Source: Vogesella oryzae | GTDB taxonomy: Bacteria > Pseudomonadota > Gammaproteobacteria > Burkholderiales > Chromobacteriaceae | Assembly: GCF_902829295.1 (NCBI RefSeq) | Contig: NZ_CADEPL010000016.1 | Coordinates: 97,931-161,930, forward strand | Direction of reading: 5' to 3' | DNA: 64,000 nucleotides | Part shown: piece by piece, positions 1,478 to 63,816 of the stretch | How positions within the stretch are numbered: the stretch's first letter is position 1 | Layout of the letters: each line of letters starts with the position of its first letter | Translations under genes and position numbers: made by a program | Notes under the pieces: generated by a model | Told to the model about the DNA's origin: nothing | Seen by the model: only the letters and a program-made list of their open reading frames with translations | The model's database searches: none

Positions 1478-2263
1478 ATGACATTTAAAAAACATATTTC
1501 TTCTGCGGCCAACGATGAGATGAAGACGTTGGCCCGCCTGCTCGACACCGCGCGGGAACGTCGCAAGCACGGAGTAGTCGTGCTTGAGGGGATTCATCTA
1601 TTGCAGTCTGCATTGGCGGCAGGTTGGCAGCCGAAGGCGGTATACGTGAATGAAGGCGCTGCCGGCAACGGCGAGTTGCTGTCATTGCTGGCGCGAATCG
1701 ATCCGCATGTCTGTCATCTGGTGGCAACAGCGGTACTGACCAAGGTGACAGCGCTTGCCACACCGGCGGAGGTGCTGGCCATTTGCGAGCGCCCCACCTC
1801 CCACATTGAGGAGGTGGCTGGTACCTGCATCATGCTGGATGACATTCAGGACCCGGGTAACCTTGGCACGATTTTGCGCTGTGCCGCTGCAGCCAACGTG
1901 CGTGAGGTTTTTCTCTCCAAAGGCTGTGTCGACGTGTATTCGCCCAAGGTGATGCGGGCGGGGATGGGGGCGCATTTTTTCCTGAATATCCACGAAGCCC
2001 AGGATCTGCCGGCAAGGTTGGCCGCACGTGATGGTCTTAAGCTGGTCACGCACCTGGAAGGCAGTGTCTCGCTATACAGTCAAAACTTGTCCGGGCCGGT
2101 GGCTTTTGTGTTTGGCAATGAGGGCAATGGTGTGAGCACTGCCGTGCTGGAACAGGCGGATGTGCGGGTGCGCATCCCCATGCCAGGGCATGCCGAGTCG
2201 CTCAATGTGGCGATGGCGGCCACGGTTTGTCTGTTCGAGCGGGTGCGTCAATTAGAGGGCTGA
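1478..2263 (+). CDS. SpoU/TrmH-family RNA 2'-O-methyltransferase
   Basis: 261 residues, a SPOUT-fold enzyme that transfers methyl from S-adenosylmethionine to a ribose 2'-OH in rRNA or tRNA. All three family motifs are visible: DDIQDPGNLGTILRCA near residue 118, FGNEGNG near 210, and IPMPGHAESLNVAMA near 232, which together build the knotted SAM pocket. The N-terminal ~100 residues resemble the SpoU substrate-binding domain. The start codon abuts the stop of the HDOD gene (TAAATG). Whether the target is 23S rRNA or tRNA cannot be told from the sequence, so no symbol is given. Confidence 0.92.
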   Translation: MTFKKHISSAANDEMKTLARLLDTARERRKHGVVVLEGIHLLQSALAAGWQPKAVYVNEGAAGNGELLSLLARIDPHVCHLVATAVLTKVTALATPAEVLAICERPTSHIEEVAGTCIMLDDIQDPGNLGTILRCAAAANVREVFLSKGCVDVYSPKVMRAGMGAHFFLNIHEAQDLPARLAARDGLKLVTHLEGSVSLYSQNLSGPVAFVFGNEGNGVSTAVLEQADVRVRIPMPGHAESLNVAMAATVCLFERVRQLEG

Positions 2264-2337
2264 TTGCGCGGCCGTCCAGTGGCACGTATCACGTTGCTAC
2301 GATGGCTGGCTGAAATTTTCTTGTATTGGGGTGTGGT

Positions 2338-2769
2338 GTGTTCAGTTGGCAACCGATTGATGCTGCCGAGTTTGAAGCGTTGCACCAGTTGCGTCTGGCA
2401 GCCATGCGGGACAGCCTGCTGACTGTCGGGCGTTACGACCCAATCCGCTCTCGGGAGCGTTTTGCCCGCCGTTTTTTTGTCGATTCCACACGCTGGATCT
2501 TGTGGCAGGGGCGGGCTGTCGGCTTTGCGGCAATGCAGCATCAGGATGATTGCTGCCATCTCGATCACTTGTACGTTGTGCCAGAAATGCAAGGGCAGGG
2601 AGTGGGAAGTCATGCCATGCTGCTCCTGCAGCAGGAAGCCGCCATGCACTCGAAAGCCATTGTTCTGTGCGCTTTACGCGATAGTCCATCAAACCGCTTT
2701 TACCAGAAGCATGGGTTTGTTAAAACGCACGAAGAAGAGTGGGACATCTGGTATCGCTGGAAAAGCTGA
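2338..2769 (+). CDS. GNAT-family N-acetyltransferase
   Basis: 143 residues with the acetyl-CoA binding motif A (VPEMQGQGVGSHAM, the Q/R-x-x-G-x-G/A loop) and a C-terminal RFYQKHGF motif typical of GNAT proteins. The substrate is unknown. I chose GTG at 2338 because GGGG lies about six bases upstream; a TTG at 2326 is in frame but has no visible ribosome binding site. It stands alone between the methyltransferase and a 208-base gap. Confidence 0.83.
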   Translation: MFSWQPIDAAEFEALHQLRLAAMRDSLLTVGRYDPIRSRERFARRFFVDSTRWILWQGRAVGFAAMQHQDDCCHLDHLYVVPEMQGQGVGSHAMLLLQQEAAMHSKAIVLCALRDSPSNRFYQKHGFVKTHEEEWDIWYRWKS

Positions 2770-2977
2770 GTCGGAATTGTGGAAAAACGATGCTCTATCT
2801 GGAGCATGTGAATATTGGCGGATTCCAGACGGTAAATAGTGCCAGCTTTTTGTAAGCTGCTTTCCTGTGTGCAGGTGTACAAAAATGTGCCGTCGATAGG
2901 GTAATCTGCCGCCATGACTGCAAGAGGTATTAACCCTCTGTGCTTTACTGTTGCCACAGCGCTGTGGCGCTAGAGTG

Positions 2978-3145
2978 TTATTCCTTGGACTCGCGCTCTA
3001 TCCGGCGTCGTTCGATTTCTCTGCGGGCATTGGCATTGCGAATATCTTCAGGACGACTGCGAGGCATCGGTTTGCCAGCCAGAATATTGCTGCGTACTTC
3101 GGCGCGAATCTCAAAGTAGGCTGTTTTGGAGTGGTAGTGCGACAT
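2978..3145 (-). CDS. Small charged protein of unknown function (55 aa)
   Basis: 55 residues, strongly charged, starting MSHYHSKTAYFEIR and ending in an Arg/Glu-rich helix. An upstream in-frame start would give 83 residues, but the inner ATG has a clear AAGGAG ribosome binding site about seven bases before it, so I chose that one. There is no signal peptide or membrane segment. I do not recognise the family. The good ribosome site and the clean charged helix support a real gene rather than a shadow. Confidence 0.6.
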   Translation of the reverse strand: MSHYHSKTAYFEIRAEVRSNILAGKPMPRSRPEDIRNANARREIERRRIERESKE

Positions 3146-3407
3146 GGCGGCTGCTCCTTGATGAGGAAACGGCGACAAGCACTGCGAGTCTAGCGCGAGG
3201 TGTAACGCACTACATCGCAGACTTACCAATAATCCTGTATTACGCCGCTACTCGGAGGAATGCAATACAAAATGGTGTCGGTTGTCCTTGAGCGGCCACC
3301 AGATGTCGTACAGTGTGGTAATGCAGCAAACCCTATGTGAGAAAAAGTAGTTCGACCCGTAACATGGCGTAGTGGTTATTGCCCTCGAATACAGACGCAA
3401 AGTAAAC
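3146..3407. other. Intergenic region without a recognised gene
   Basis: Together with the terminator that follows, this makes a gap of about 305 bases between the 55-residue gene and the first parvulin gene. I see no convincing coding frame or tRNA-like cloverleaf. It should hold the promoter of the minus-strand 55-residue gene, which I could not place with confidence. Confidence 0.5.
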
Positions 3408-62190: not shown

Positions 62191-62212
62191 CAGTTCCAAA
62201 CCAGTGCTGATA

Positions 62213-62416
62213 TTACAGCGGCTGGATGTTGGAAGCTTGTTTGCCCTTCGGGCCATCAACGATGTCAAAGCTTACGCGCTGGTTTTCTGCCAGGGAGCGG
62301 AAGCCTTTGGAGTTGATTTGCGAGAAGTGTGCAAATACGTCGTCACCACCATTGTCCGGAGTGATGAAGCCGAAACCTTTAGCGTCGTTGAACCATTTTA
62401 CGGTACCGGTTGCCAT
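62213..62416 (-). CDS. Cold-shock protein, CspA family
   Basis: 67 residues. RNA-binding motifs RNP1 (KGFGFI) and RNP2 (VFAHF) are intact in MATGTVKWFNDAKGFGFITP. It acts as an RNA chaperone. The upstream 296-base gap, shared with the divergent HPt-HD-GYP gene, leaves room for the long structured 5' leader known for CspA mRNAs. It includes the inverted repeat GACTTG...CAAGTC near 62,527-62,546. Confidence 0.95.
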   Translation of the reverse strand: MATGTVKWFNDAKGFGFITPDNGGDDVFAHFSQINSKGFRSLAENQRVSFDIVDGPKGKQASNIQPL

Positions 62417-62615
62417 GTTCTATTCCCTTATTGAGAAAGCGTTGAGTATGAGAAAAGCGCATGTCAATCAAGGGAAAAGACAAACTGTGGTACGGCGATA
62501 GCCTTTACAACAACTGTACAGATCACGACTTGAAAAACTGCAAGTCGCAGTCTGCCTGCGCTTCAGGGGACAAGCAAGTCTTTTTTGCAGCAAATCCATA
62601 AAAAAAATGTGGGCT

Positions 62616-62630
62616 ATGACAACTTGTCAT
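62616..62630. promoter_or_regulatory. 15-base palindrome between csp and the HPt-HD-GYP gene
   Basis: ATGACAACTTGTCAT has two perfect 7-base arms around one base. It lies 83 bases before the HPt-HD-GYP start in a divergent promoter region and looks like an operator. I cannot name the binding protein. Confidence 0.5.
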
Positions 62631-62712
62631 ACGGCAAATGGACATTTCTGCCATTACGAATCAGGAGTGGCTCTATAGTGCAGTCACAGAACACAGACAA
62701 AGGGAGAGGTAT

Positions 62713-63816
62713 ATGGAGGAGACCATTGAACACTATCGCATTGAGGATGAAGAGAGTTTCGGTGATTTCCTCTATGCGCTGAATGAATATGCACCTCGTG
62801 CGGCCAACTTGTTGCAGACGCTTCGCCAGCAGCCGGCGGATCAGCTGGTGCTGGCGGAGTTGATGCGGCTTTTTCACACCATCAAGGGGGATGCCGGCCT
62901 GTGCCGGTTGTATTTTGTGGAGCCGCTGGTGCATGCCGTTGAGGATACGCTGGCACGCATCAAGGCGGGAGAGCTGATATTTAGCGCGGCACTGGAGCAG
63001 GTCATGCTGTTGGCCGTAGACCGGCTGGAATTGTTGATTTCCGAGCTGGACAGTGGCCGGGATATCTCCTTGCGCGATTTCAACTTGCTGATTGCAGAGT
63101 TGCAGCAGCTGGGGGAAACGCCTGCCGCGCTGGTTGATGCCCAGGCATGGTTATTGGTCAAGCGGCTTACCGGCTTTGTGCCACAGCAAAGCTTGCCGGC
63201 CAAGCCAAGTGCGGCGTCACCGGCGCAGCAGGCCGACCTGGAGTTTTTCCGTTCATTGGCACTGCAGTTCGAGCAGCGCTCCATGCTGTTTCAGGGACGC
63301 ACCGAACGAAATCTGATGTTGGCCGCAGCGTGCAATCAGGTGTCTGGCTGGTTGGTGGACCCTTTGCAACTGGAGGCTGCGGTCTATATGCACGATATCG
63401 GGATGATGTTTTTGCCGCAGGAGCTGTGGTTGCGGCAGGGGCGTCTGAGTGCCGAAGAGCGGATACAGCTTGCCGCGCATCCGGGCTGGGGGGCAGATTT
63501 GCTGGGGCGAATGACTGGCTGGGAAATGGCGGCCCGCATTACGCGGGAACACCATGAGCGTCCGGACGGGCATGGCTACCCAGCGGGGCTGCGCGCGGAT
63601 TTGATTTGTGACGGCGCCAAACTGCTGGCCATTATCGACACGTTTGAGGCCGTGATCTTGCGGCATGGCCAGCGGCATCAGGTGCGCTCACTGCTGCGTG
63701 CCCTGGCGGAAGTCAATGCAGGCGAAGCCCAGTTTGACGCGGTGTGGATCGGGCACTTCAATCAGGTCGTGCGCAACATGATGGACGAAGGTGTGGTGTT
63801 GCCCCATGTCCGGTGA
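62713..63816 (+). CDS. HPt-HD-GYP cyclic di-GMP phosphodiesterase
   Basis: 367 residues. The N-terminal HPt domain (about 10-120) has the phosphoacceptor His55 in LFHTIKGDAGLC. The C-terminal HD-GYP domain (about 190-360) shows H227-D228 in VYMHDIGM and HHERPDGHGYP at 280-290, so it should cleave c-di-GMP. Such a fusion would let a phosphorelay control c-di-GMP. No kinase or receiver gene adjoins it. I chose ATG 62713 with AGGGAGAGG upstream; a longer frame from 62638 lacks a ribosome site. Confidence 0.9.
   Translation: MEETIEHYRIEDEESFGDFLYALNEYAPRAANLLQTLRQQPADQLVLAELMRLFHTIKGDAGLCRLYFVEPLVHAVEDTLARIKAGELIFSAALEQVMLLAVDRLELLISELDSGRDISLRDFNLLIAELQQLGETPAALVDAQAWLLVKRLTGFVPQQSLPAKPSAASPAQQADLEFFRSLALQFEQRSMLFQGRTERNLMLAAACNQVSGWLVDPLQLEAAVYMHDIGMMFLPQELWLRQGRLSAEERIQLAAHPGWGADLLGRMTGWEMAARITREHHERPDGHGYPAGLRADLICDGAKLLAIIDTFEAVILRHGQRHQVRSLLRALAEVNAGEAQFDAVWIGHFNQVVRNMMDEGVVLPHVR

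What the first reader, a model, noticed from the sequence alone, without database searches (positions are those of the whole stretch)
1504..63327. A 10-mer, GTTGGCCGCA, repeats 37 times: candidate new DNA uptake sequence dialect
The sequence shows 21 copies on + and 16 on -, spaced irregularly about every 1.7 kb, in genes and between them. A chance model at 58% GC predicts about 0.2 copies. The core is tightly kept, while flanks vary. Neisseriaceae uptake sequences (GCCGTCTGAA dialects, bound by ComP) show the same density, lack of strand polarity and use in terminators, but this sequence is unrelated. I know of no description of this motif in Chromobacteriaceae-like bacteria. Chi or KOPS sites would be strand-biased, and restriction sites are usually avoided rather than enriched.
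Basis: partly seen in the sequence, partly recalled or inferred. Interest (0 to 1): 0.93.

Follow-up and report, generated by a model that had tools for sequence, protein, structure and literature searches.

The report
DNA uptake password in Vogesella
A Vogesella bacterium carries about 2,300 copies of a ten-letter DNA word, and related genera carry sister spellings; the word likely works as a password by which a pilus protein would recognise and pull in DNA from the bacterium's own kind, a type of system best known from Neisseria.

Summary
GTTGGCCGCA occurs 38 times in the window (0.45 expected) and 2,273 times in the 3.4-Mb genome, balanced by strand. All 13 genomes held of the genus (Vogesella) carry 1,871-2,895 copies; 48 relatives outside it carry 2-58. 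A blind k-mer scan and family-wide counts show sister words: GTTGGCCGAA in 8 genomes (Crenobacter and Gulbenkiania among them) and GTTGGCCGAG in 2; 38 of 61 family genomes have none in quantity. The same scan recovered known DUS dialects in 3 of 4 Neisseriaceae stretches. All 23 bearers encode a relative of ComP, the Neisseria DUS receptor; the modelled Vogesella protein matches ComP structures best in the PDB. Best explanation: a separate branch of DUS dialects read by ComP in Chromobacteriaceae. The core is CCG, not the CTG reported as conserved in all described dialects; AG prefix and A/C switch at +9 are DUS-like. Binding and uptake are untested, and ComP-like genes also occur in genomes without the word. 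A published reading puts the origin of DUS after the split from Chromobacterium; these data favour an older origin with losses.

The parts
1504..1513 (-). GTTGGCCGCA copy
   Evidence: exact match
2017..2026 (+). GTTGGCCGCA copy
   Evidence: exact match
7353..7362 (+). GTTGGCCGCA copy
   Evidence: exact match
8223..8232 (+). GTTGGCCGCA copy
   Evidence: exact match
9073..9082 (+). GTTGGCCGCA copy
   Evidence: exact match
9723..9754 (.). inverted near-pair AAAAGGTTGGGCGCA / TGCGGCCAACCTTTTTT just after predicted gene 8630-9721; terminator-like; holds the exact copy at 9738-9747 (-)
   Evidence: exact copy; intergenic and sequence printed; terminator reading by eye
11510..11519 (+). GTTGGCCGCA copy
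   Evidence: exact match
12950..12959 (-). GTTGGCCGCA copy
   Evidence: exact match
16084..16093 (+). GTTGGCCGCA copy, intergenic
20132..20162 (.). inverted pair of two exact copies (20133-20142 -, 20152-20161 +), 12-pair stem, terminator-like
   Evidence: two terminator-like sites in the 2-kb stretch scanned, 1.8 expected in shuffles
20552..20561 (-). GTTGGCCGCA copy
   Evidence: exact match
21618..21627 (+). GTTGGCCGCA copy
   Evidence: exact match
22068..22077 (+). GTTGGCCGCA copy
   Evidence: exact match
25106..25115 (+). GTTGGCCGCA copy
   Evidence: exact match
25848..25857 (+). GTTGGCCGCA copy
   Evidence: exact match
27781..27790 (-). GTTGGCCGCA copy, intergenic
29736..29745 (+). GTTGGCCGCA copy
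   Evidence: exact match
32260..32269 (-). GTTGGCCGCA copy
   Evidence: exact match
35111..35120 (+). GTTGGCCGCA copy
   Evidence: exact match
36304..36313 (-). GTTGGCCGCA copy
   Evidence: exact match
41104..41113 (+). GTTGGCCGCA copy
   Evidence: exact match
41865..41874 (+). GTTGGCCGCA copy
   Evidence: exact match
42430..42439 (+). GTTGGCCGCA copy, intergenic
43659..43668 (-). GTTGGCCGCA copy
   Evidence: exact match
44817..44826 (-). GTTGGCCGCA copy
   Evidence: exact match
46722..46731 (+). GTTGGCCGCA copy
   Evidence: exact match
49350..49359 (-). GTTGGCCGCA copy
   Evidence: exact match
49966..49975 (+). GTTGGCCGCA copy
   Evidence: exact match
52378..52387 (-). GTTGGCCGCA copy
   Evidence: exact match
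53002..53011 (-). GTTGGCCGCA copy
   Evidence: exact match
56128..56137 (-). GTTGGCCGCA copy
   Evidence: exact match
58012..58021 (+). GTTGGCCGCA copy
   Evidence: exact match
60528..60537 (-). GTTGGCCGCA copy
   Evidence: exact match
61182..61191 (+). GTTGGCCGCA copy
   Evidence: exact match
61416..61425 (+). GTTGGCCGCA copy
   Evidence: exact match
62799..62808 (-). GTTGGCCGCA copy
   Evidence: exact match
63318..63327 (+). GTTGGCCGCA copy
   Evidence: exact match

Best explanation
GTTGGCCGCA, present 2,273 times in this Vogesella genome, is likely a DNA uptake sequence: double-stranded DNA that carries it would be bound at the cell surface by the predicted minor pilin ComP and drawn in by the type IV pilus, so that the cell would prefer DNA of its own genus. 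Shown here: the genome-wide, strand-balanced, genus-specific excess; sister words (GTTGGCCGAA, GTTGGCCGAG) in other genera of the family; inverted pairs, some terminator-like; a ComP relative in every bearing genome; ComEC, DprA and pilMNOPQ in the genome of the window. Inferred: that ComP binds the word (effective form about AG-GTTGGCCGCA), that repeated transformation and recombination accumulates it, and that changes in ComP moved the spelling at positions +9/+10.
Against: No binding or uptake data; no paper found on competence in Vogesella (2 papers hold both terms, neither title on the subject). ComP-like genes also occur in word-less g6, g7 (Chromobacterium) and g8 genomes searched (42-88 bits, 91-141), so ComP is not sufficient. 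The CTG core (+6 to +8), reported as conserved in all described dialects, is CCG here, and the AG form lacks A at +10. Likeness to DUS letters is weak for the Vogesella word itself: 8 of 12, reached by 9.3% of shuffles. The Pfam ComP_DUS score of the G000 protein is 18.4 bits, below cut-off, and one search lists no family for it. One low-GC stretch (L114) has 12 copies, against the island-depletion rule. Weak bias to the G-rich strand, 307:251, p 0.02.
Confidence: 0.88

Rival explanations
1. It is an uptake sequence, but the receptor is another pilin, such as the GspH/FimT-like pilin encoded next to comP or a PilE-type minor pilin.
For: A GspH-like pilin gene lies directly before comP in G000, and several pilins score in each genome. 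FimT of another bacterium is reported to act in DNA uptake (PMC8897410, title and start of abstract in the listing only).
Against: The ComP fold and sequence are nearest to the known DUS receptor, with a gap to other pilins; dialect labels cluster on the ComP tree (7 changes, shuffled mean 25.9), though near-copies help that.
Confidence: 0.07
2. It is a chromosome-maintenance word (Chi-like recombination hot spot or FtsK-orienting KOPS).
For: A small excess on the G-rich strand, 307:251 in samples of two genomes (p 0.02).
Against: Only 55:45; forward and reverse counts are close in every genus member; 37-157 face-to-face pairs per genome; the spelling changes between sister genera and is absent in many, which is unexpected for RecBCD or FtsK partners (recalled).
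Confidence: 0.02
3. It is mainly a transcription terminator or RNA element that spread as inverted repeats.
For: Intergenic copies 87 of 324 against 36.1 expected; terminator-like pairs in the window.
Against: 231 of 324 copies lie wholly inside predicted genes, and only 29 neighbour pairs of any orientation lie within 20 bp, so most coding copies are single; the commonest pair has no loop (spacer 0).
Confidence: 0.02
4. It is a dispersed repeat, methylation or restriction site (REP-like, HIP1-like).
For: Short, dispersed and frequent.
Against: The conserved block is only about 12-13 bases, with no longer shared flank, unlike REP or transposon copies; it is not a palindrome; sister spellings follow genus and occur only in genomes with ComP relatives. 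No methylation data were available.
Confidence: 0.01

Closest known systems
DNA uptake sequence (DUS) dialects of Neisseriaceae, read by ComP (Frye 2013, PMC3630211; section 6 and passages seen)
   Same: 10-12-mer, about one per 1-2 kb, both strands, genus-level dialects, inverted pairs, ComP relative in all bearers; AG prefix; A/C switch at +9 as in king3DUS; the AA word AGGTTGGCCGAA matches simDUS at 9 of 12
   Different: Core CCG instead of CTG; G at +10 in one dialect; found in Chromobacteriaceae, where the paper reported no obvious DUS in the genomes it checked (Chromobacterium, Pseudogulbenkiania, Lutiella, Laribacter) and no ComP in C. violaceum
Uptake signal sequence (USS) of Pasteurellaceae (letters recalled)
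   Same: Genome-wide self-recognition word; the reverse complement TGCGGCCAACC resembles the recalled USS AAGTGCGGTCAA by eye
   Different: Another class of bacteria; its receptor is stated as unknown, with a pilin candidate (PMC12616744, title and start of abstract in the listing); resemblance not tested, may be chance
ComP minor pilin (PDB 5hz7, 2nba, 2m3k)
   Same: Best match in sequence and fold; prepilin-type start; C-terminal cysteine pair invariant
   Different: About 20-31% identity to the solved ComPs; DNA-contact residues not determined here

Membership tests
Neisseriaceae-type DUS | Massive excess of one 10-12-mer on both strands genome-wide | tested here: met
   2,273 copies, 1110:1163; reversed control 13; 13 of 13 genus members
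Neisseriaceae-type DUS | Related dialects in related genera | tested here: met
   CA, AA and AG endings on GTTGGCCG in 13, 8 and 2 of 61 family genomes
Neisseriaceae-type DUS | CTG at +6 to +8 and A at +10 in every dialect | tested here: not met
   CCG in all three dialects; G at +10 in the AG dialect (rule)
Neisseriaceae-type DUS | Inverted pairs, partly terminator-like | tested here: met
   37-157 pairs in 6 of 6 Vogesella genomes sampled; 20132-20162 in the window
Neisseriaceae-type DUS | Poor in recently acquired DNA | tested here: inconclusive
   of five low-GC 20-kb stretches L098 0, L102 2, L123 3, L100 5, but L114 12 copies; about 13-14 expected
Neisseriaceae-type DUS | Word raises binding, uptake or transformation | not testable with these tools
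   needs an experiment
ComP | ComP fold nearest among solved structures | tested here: met
ComP | Groups with Neisseriaceae ComP apart from other pilins | tested here: met
   quick tree of 42 rows; 3 PilE-like outgroup pilins split off at 99; 13 of 39 inner branches starred, 10 open
ComP | Pfam ComP_DUS over cut-off | tested here: inconclusive
   ComP of several other Vogesella over the 27.3-bit cut-off; that of G000 18.4 and of G001 24 bits, under it
ComP | Sequence-specific DNA binding | not testable with these tools
   needs EMSA or SPR
Chi or KOPS | Strong polarity along the replichore | tested here: not met
   307:251 on the G-rich strand
Pasteurellaceae USS | USS core with AT-rich downstream boxes | not tested
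   letters recalled only

The most novel reading that the evidence does not exclude
DUS-ComP self-recognition is older than Neisseriaceae: the ancestor shared with Chromobacteriaceae already had it, with a CCG-type core close to AG-GTTGGCCGAA; Vogesella (CA), one genus (AG) and Neisseriaceae (CTG) each changed the spelling as ComP changed, and Chromobacterium and others kept ComP but lost the word. The family then holds a natural series of receptor-word pairs, with a candidate specificity segment near the C-terminus of ComP (TQTG with CA, DQDG or NQDG with AA, ESG with AG).
Probability: 0.5. Interest if true: 0.87.

Novelty: new variant of a known kind. Interest (0 to 1): 0.8.

Why it matters
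Self-specific DNA uptake words are known from very few bacterial lineages (recalled), and how a word and its receptor arise and change together is an open question. Here is a second family with three spellings, bearers and non-bearers side by side, and a receptor relative in all bearers. If true, it breaks the rule that CTG is invariant in DUS, speaks against the published reading that the system arose after the split from Chromobacterium and that no ComP is found there, and offers environmental bacteria for testing how ComP reads DNA. It could also make Vogesella and Crenobacter easier to engineer, if they are competent.

Tried and rejected
Chi, KOPS, terminator-only and repeat or restriction readings: rejected for the reasons under rivals. 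Pfam ComP_DUS as a marker of bearers: rejected, since it hits 56 of 61 genomes, bearers or not. ComP presence as a marker: rejected for the same reason. Search for the AA word outside the family: among 200 genomes of the order only G017 (inside the family) stands out with 627; the 194 genomes outside the family have 0-11. Blind scan of other families: of 20 stretches, 4 were Neisseriaceae (3 with a known DUS; G123 with another repeat); of the 16 others one (L148, 3.3 kb with Ns) was unusable and none of 15 showed a DUS-like word, though one (L144) has a local repeat; two further stretches (f16, f5) showed none. A literal search for the motif letters gave 448 papers with any of four strings; none of the 20 listed titles concerns DNA uptake, the other 428 were not seen. 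Further paper searches: Vogesella + uptake sequence 0; two of Chromobacteriaceae, DNA uptake sequence, natural transformation 125, 20 listed; uptake sequence + Chromobacterium 5; Vogesella + natural transformation 2, listing only; uptake sequences + Chromobacteriaceae 2, both seen in passages and naming Chromobacterium as outgroup or Chromobacteriaceae in the reference list. PMC12061091 was seen as abstract and passages. That nothing is in print rests on these searches of open papers alone. Not followed: supplementary Table S1D of Frye 2013, which lists over-represented 10-mers of the five DUS-less genomes.

Limits: genes were called by a home-made codon score, not an annotation. On the tree only 3 of 9 rows labelled DUS (G079, G163, G200) had the word scanned; the other 6 carry the label by family. 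mucDUS and wadDUS letters are recalled; the other dialect letters appear. f44 is called Neisseriaceae because its stretches hold known DUS. Names for g3, g5 and g7 rest on near-identical ComP proteins of single members; g2, g4, g6, g8, g9 and g10 are unnamed. VIA looked only at Foldseek's own top chains. The motif-poor stretches were picked because they are poor.
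Full report
Observation. GTTGGCCGCA occurs 38 times in the window (22 + and 16 -), against a mean of 0.45 in shuffles; it is by far the commonest 10-mer. The window is contig C16:97931-161930 of a 3,415,129-bp genome in 58 contigs that holds 1110 + 1163 copies, with 13 matches for the reversed pattern as control. In a sample of 478,426 bp of this genome (window plus 22 stretches) there are 324 exact copies against 4.0 expected from an order-3 model; forms with one change are near chance, except at position 10 (G 75, C 61, T 19, against 4-8 expected) and small excesses such as C at 1 (10 vs 3.8), A at 8 (8 vs 1.5) and T at 9 (6 vs 1.1). 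So GTTGGCCGC occurs 479 times, once per kilobase, with A preferred last. On the 5' side A is preferred at -2 (0.61) and -3 (0.48), and G or C at -1; there is no clear 3' extension.

Who carries it. The genus is therefore Vogesella, of Chromobacteriaceae; the species of the window was not determined. All 13 Vogesella genomes held carry 1,871-2,895 copies, close to balanced by strand, while 24 other genomes of the family and 24 of the order carry 2-58. Face-to-face pairs with 0-14 bases between are found 37-157 times in 6 of 6 Vogesella genomes sampled, and once each in 2 of 393 other genomes of the order.

Sister words. A blind 10-mer scan of two stretches (37-40 kb together) from each of nine other family genera found GTTGGCCGAA on top in g2, g3, g5 and g10, GTTGGCCGAG in g4, and no such word in g6, g7, g8 and g9. 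Whole-genome counts over all 61 family genomes held: CA form high only in the 13 Vogesella; AA form 2,168 and 579 (g3), 1,245 (g5), 1,851 (g10), 1,104, 893 and 183 (g2) and 1,368 in G017, alone among ten g6 genomes; AG form 1,940 and 1,590 (g4); G023 of g3 also has 165 AG; in the other 38 genomes (nine g6, nineteen g7, six g8, four g9) no form exceeds 92 copies. By near-identical ComP proteins with source names, g3 is Crenobacter (G023 100% to Crenobacter sp. SG2303), g5 Gulbenkiania (G016 99%) and g7 mostly Chromobacterium (G429 99% to C. alkanivorans; G018 is identical to a protein of Neisseriaceae bacterium TC5R-5). The AA and AG copies show the same AG prefix (-2 A 0.58 and 0.67; -1 G 0.63 and 0.71; 71 and 21 copies). 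The 11-mer GGTTGGCCGAA stays at 0-11 in 194 genomes of the order outside the family.

Control. The same blind scan on 20-kb stretches of four f44 genomes returned ATGCCGTCTGAA, AGGCCGTCTGAA and AGGCAGCCTGAA, the AT-DUS, AG-DUS and kingDUS of Neisseriaceae, in three of them, and another repeat in the fourth; 15 usable stretches from other families gave nothing of the kind.

Anatomy of copies. By a home-made gene call, 231 of 324 copies lie wholly in genes, mostly in one frame for each orientation (sense NNG TTG GCC GCA 80 of 126; antisense the corresponding phase 68 of 105), 87 are wholly intergenic against 36.1 expected, and 6 straddle an edge (p 5e-15). In the window the pair at 20132-20162 forms a 12-pair stem with a T-rich tail (such matches are as common in shuffles of that stretch, 1.8 expected), and 9723-9754 is a near-pair running into six T after a gene (by eye). 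Copies are scarce in a BREX island (L098, 0), a stretch with several PHROG-family matches (L102, 2) and a stretch with a polysaccharide gene (L123, 3), where about 13-14 are expected, less so in L100 (5), and not in the low-GC stretch L114 (12).

Relation to known DUS. In Frye 2013 (section 6 and passages seen) all eight dialects share CTG at +6 to +8 and A at +10; five genomes, of Laribacter, Lutiella, Pseudogulbenkiania and Chromobacterium (two), had no obvious DUS; and the authors place the origin of the system after the split from C. violaceum, in which BLAST found no ComP. In that numbering the words here read AG-GTTGGCCG(CA, AA or AG): C at +6 and G at +8 are kept, +7 is C, and the A/C alternation at +9 is the one that separates king3DUS from kingDUS. 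AGGTTGGCCGAA matches simDUS (letters in PMC10715097, passages) at 9 of 12; 1.1% of shuffles match any of eight dialects as well in any register. The CA and AG words reach 8 of 12, as do 9.3% and 6.9% of shuffles. This is suggestive, not proof. So the words behave like DUS in most respects that could be tested, but fail one defining feature of the described set, and are best called a new branch of DUS dialects.

Mechanism and status of steps. Shown: word, dialects, orthologous receptor gene, pilus and competence genes. Inferred: ComP binding, preferential uptake, accumulation by repeated transformation and recombination, dialect change by ComP change. The segment TQTG (CA; G007 has LSTG), DQDG or NQDG (AA) and ESG (AG) near the ComP C-terminus follows the word, but DQDG also occurs in word-less g6 and g7 and the independent changes are few, so it is a lead only.

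Noticed in passing
L157, L167, L168 (g7, Chromobacterium and kin): These genomes encode ComP-like pilins (106-141 bits), although Frye 2013 reported none by BLAST in C. violaceum; they have no abundant form of the word.
   Followed up: partly
A2, segment near the C-terminus of ComP: TQTG, DQDG/NQDG and ESG forms follow the CA, AA and AG words; a candidate specificity segment.
   Followed up: partly
L098 (G001): A BREX defence island (BrxC-type, methylase, PglZ, BrxL, WYL regulator) of at least 12 kb without one copy of the word.
   Followed up: partly
L056 and G017: One of ten g6 genomes has 1,368 copies of the AA word while its nine genus mates have at most 36: a loss or gain to study.
   Followed up: no
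G023, G029: Two genomes with few or mixed words (579 AA + 165 AG; 183 AA), possibly dialects in decay or change.
   Followed up: no
L081, L082 (g9): Repeats of CCCTACTCCCTA and of TCAGGGTAAA in the two g9 stretches, which hold pilin-like genes; not DUS-like by eye.
   Followed up: no
L138 (G123, Neisseriaceae): A 12-mer GACACCAAGATC ten times in 20 kb at 34% GC, in a genome whose ComP-like protein is on a long branch; repeat or gene family not resolved.
   Followed up: no
L144 (G209): Local repeat with CTCTGTGTTTCA eight times in 20 kb; not examined.
   Followed up: no
spacer-0 pairs in the G000 sample and in listed places: The commonest inverted pair is a 20-bp palindrome TGCGGCCAACGTTGGCCGCA without a loop, so pairs are not only terminators; compare the dyad pairs reported in Simonsiella (passage).
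   Followed up: partly
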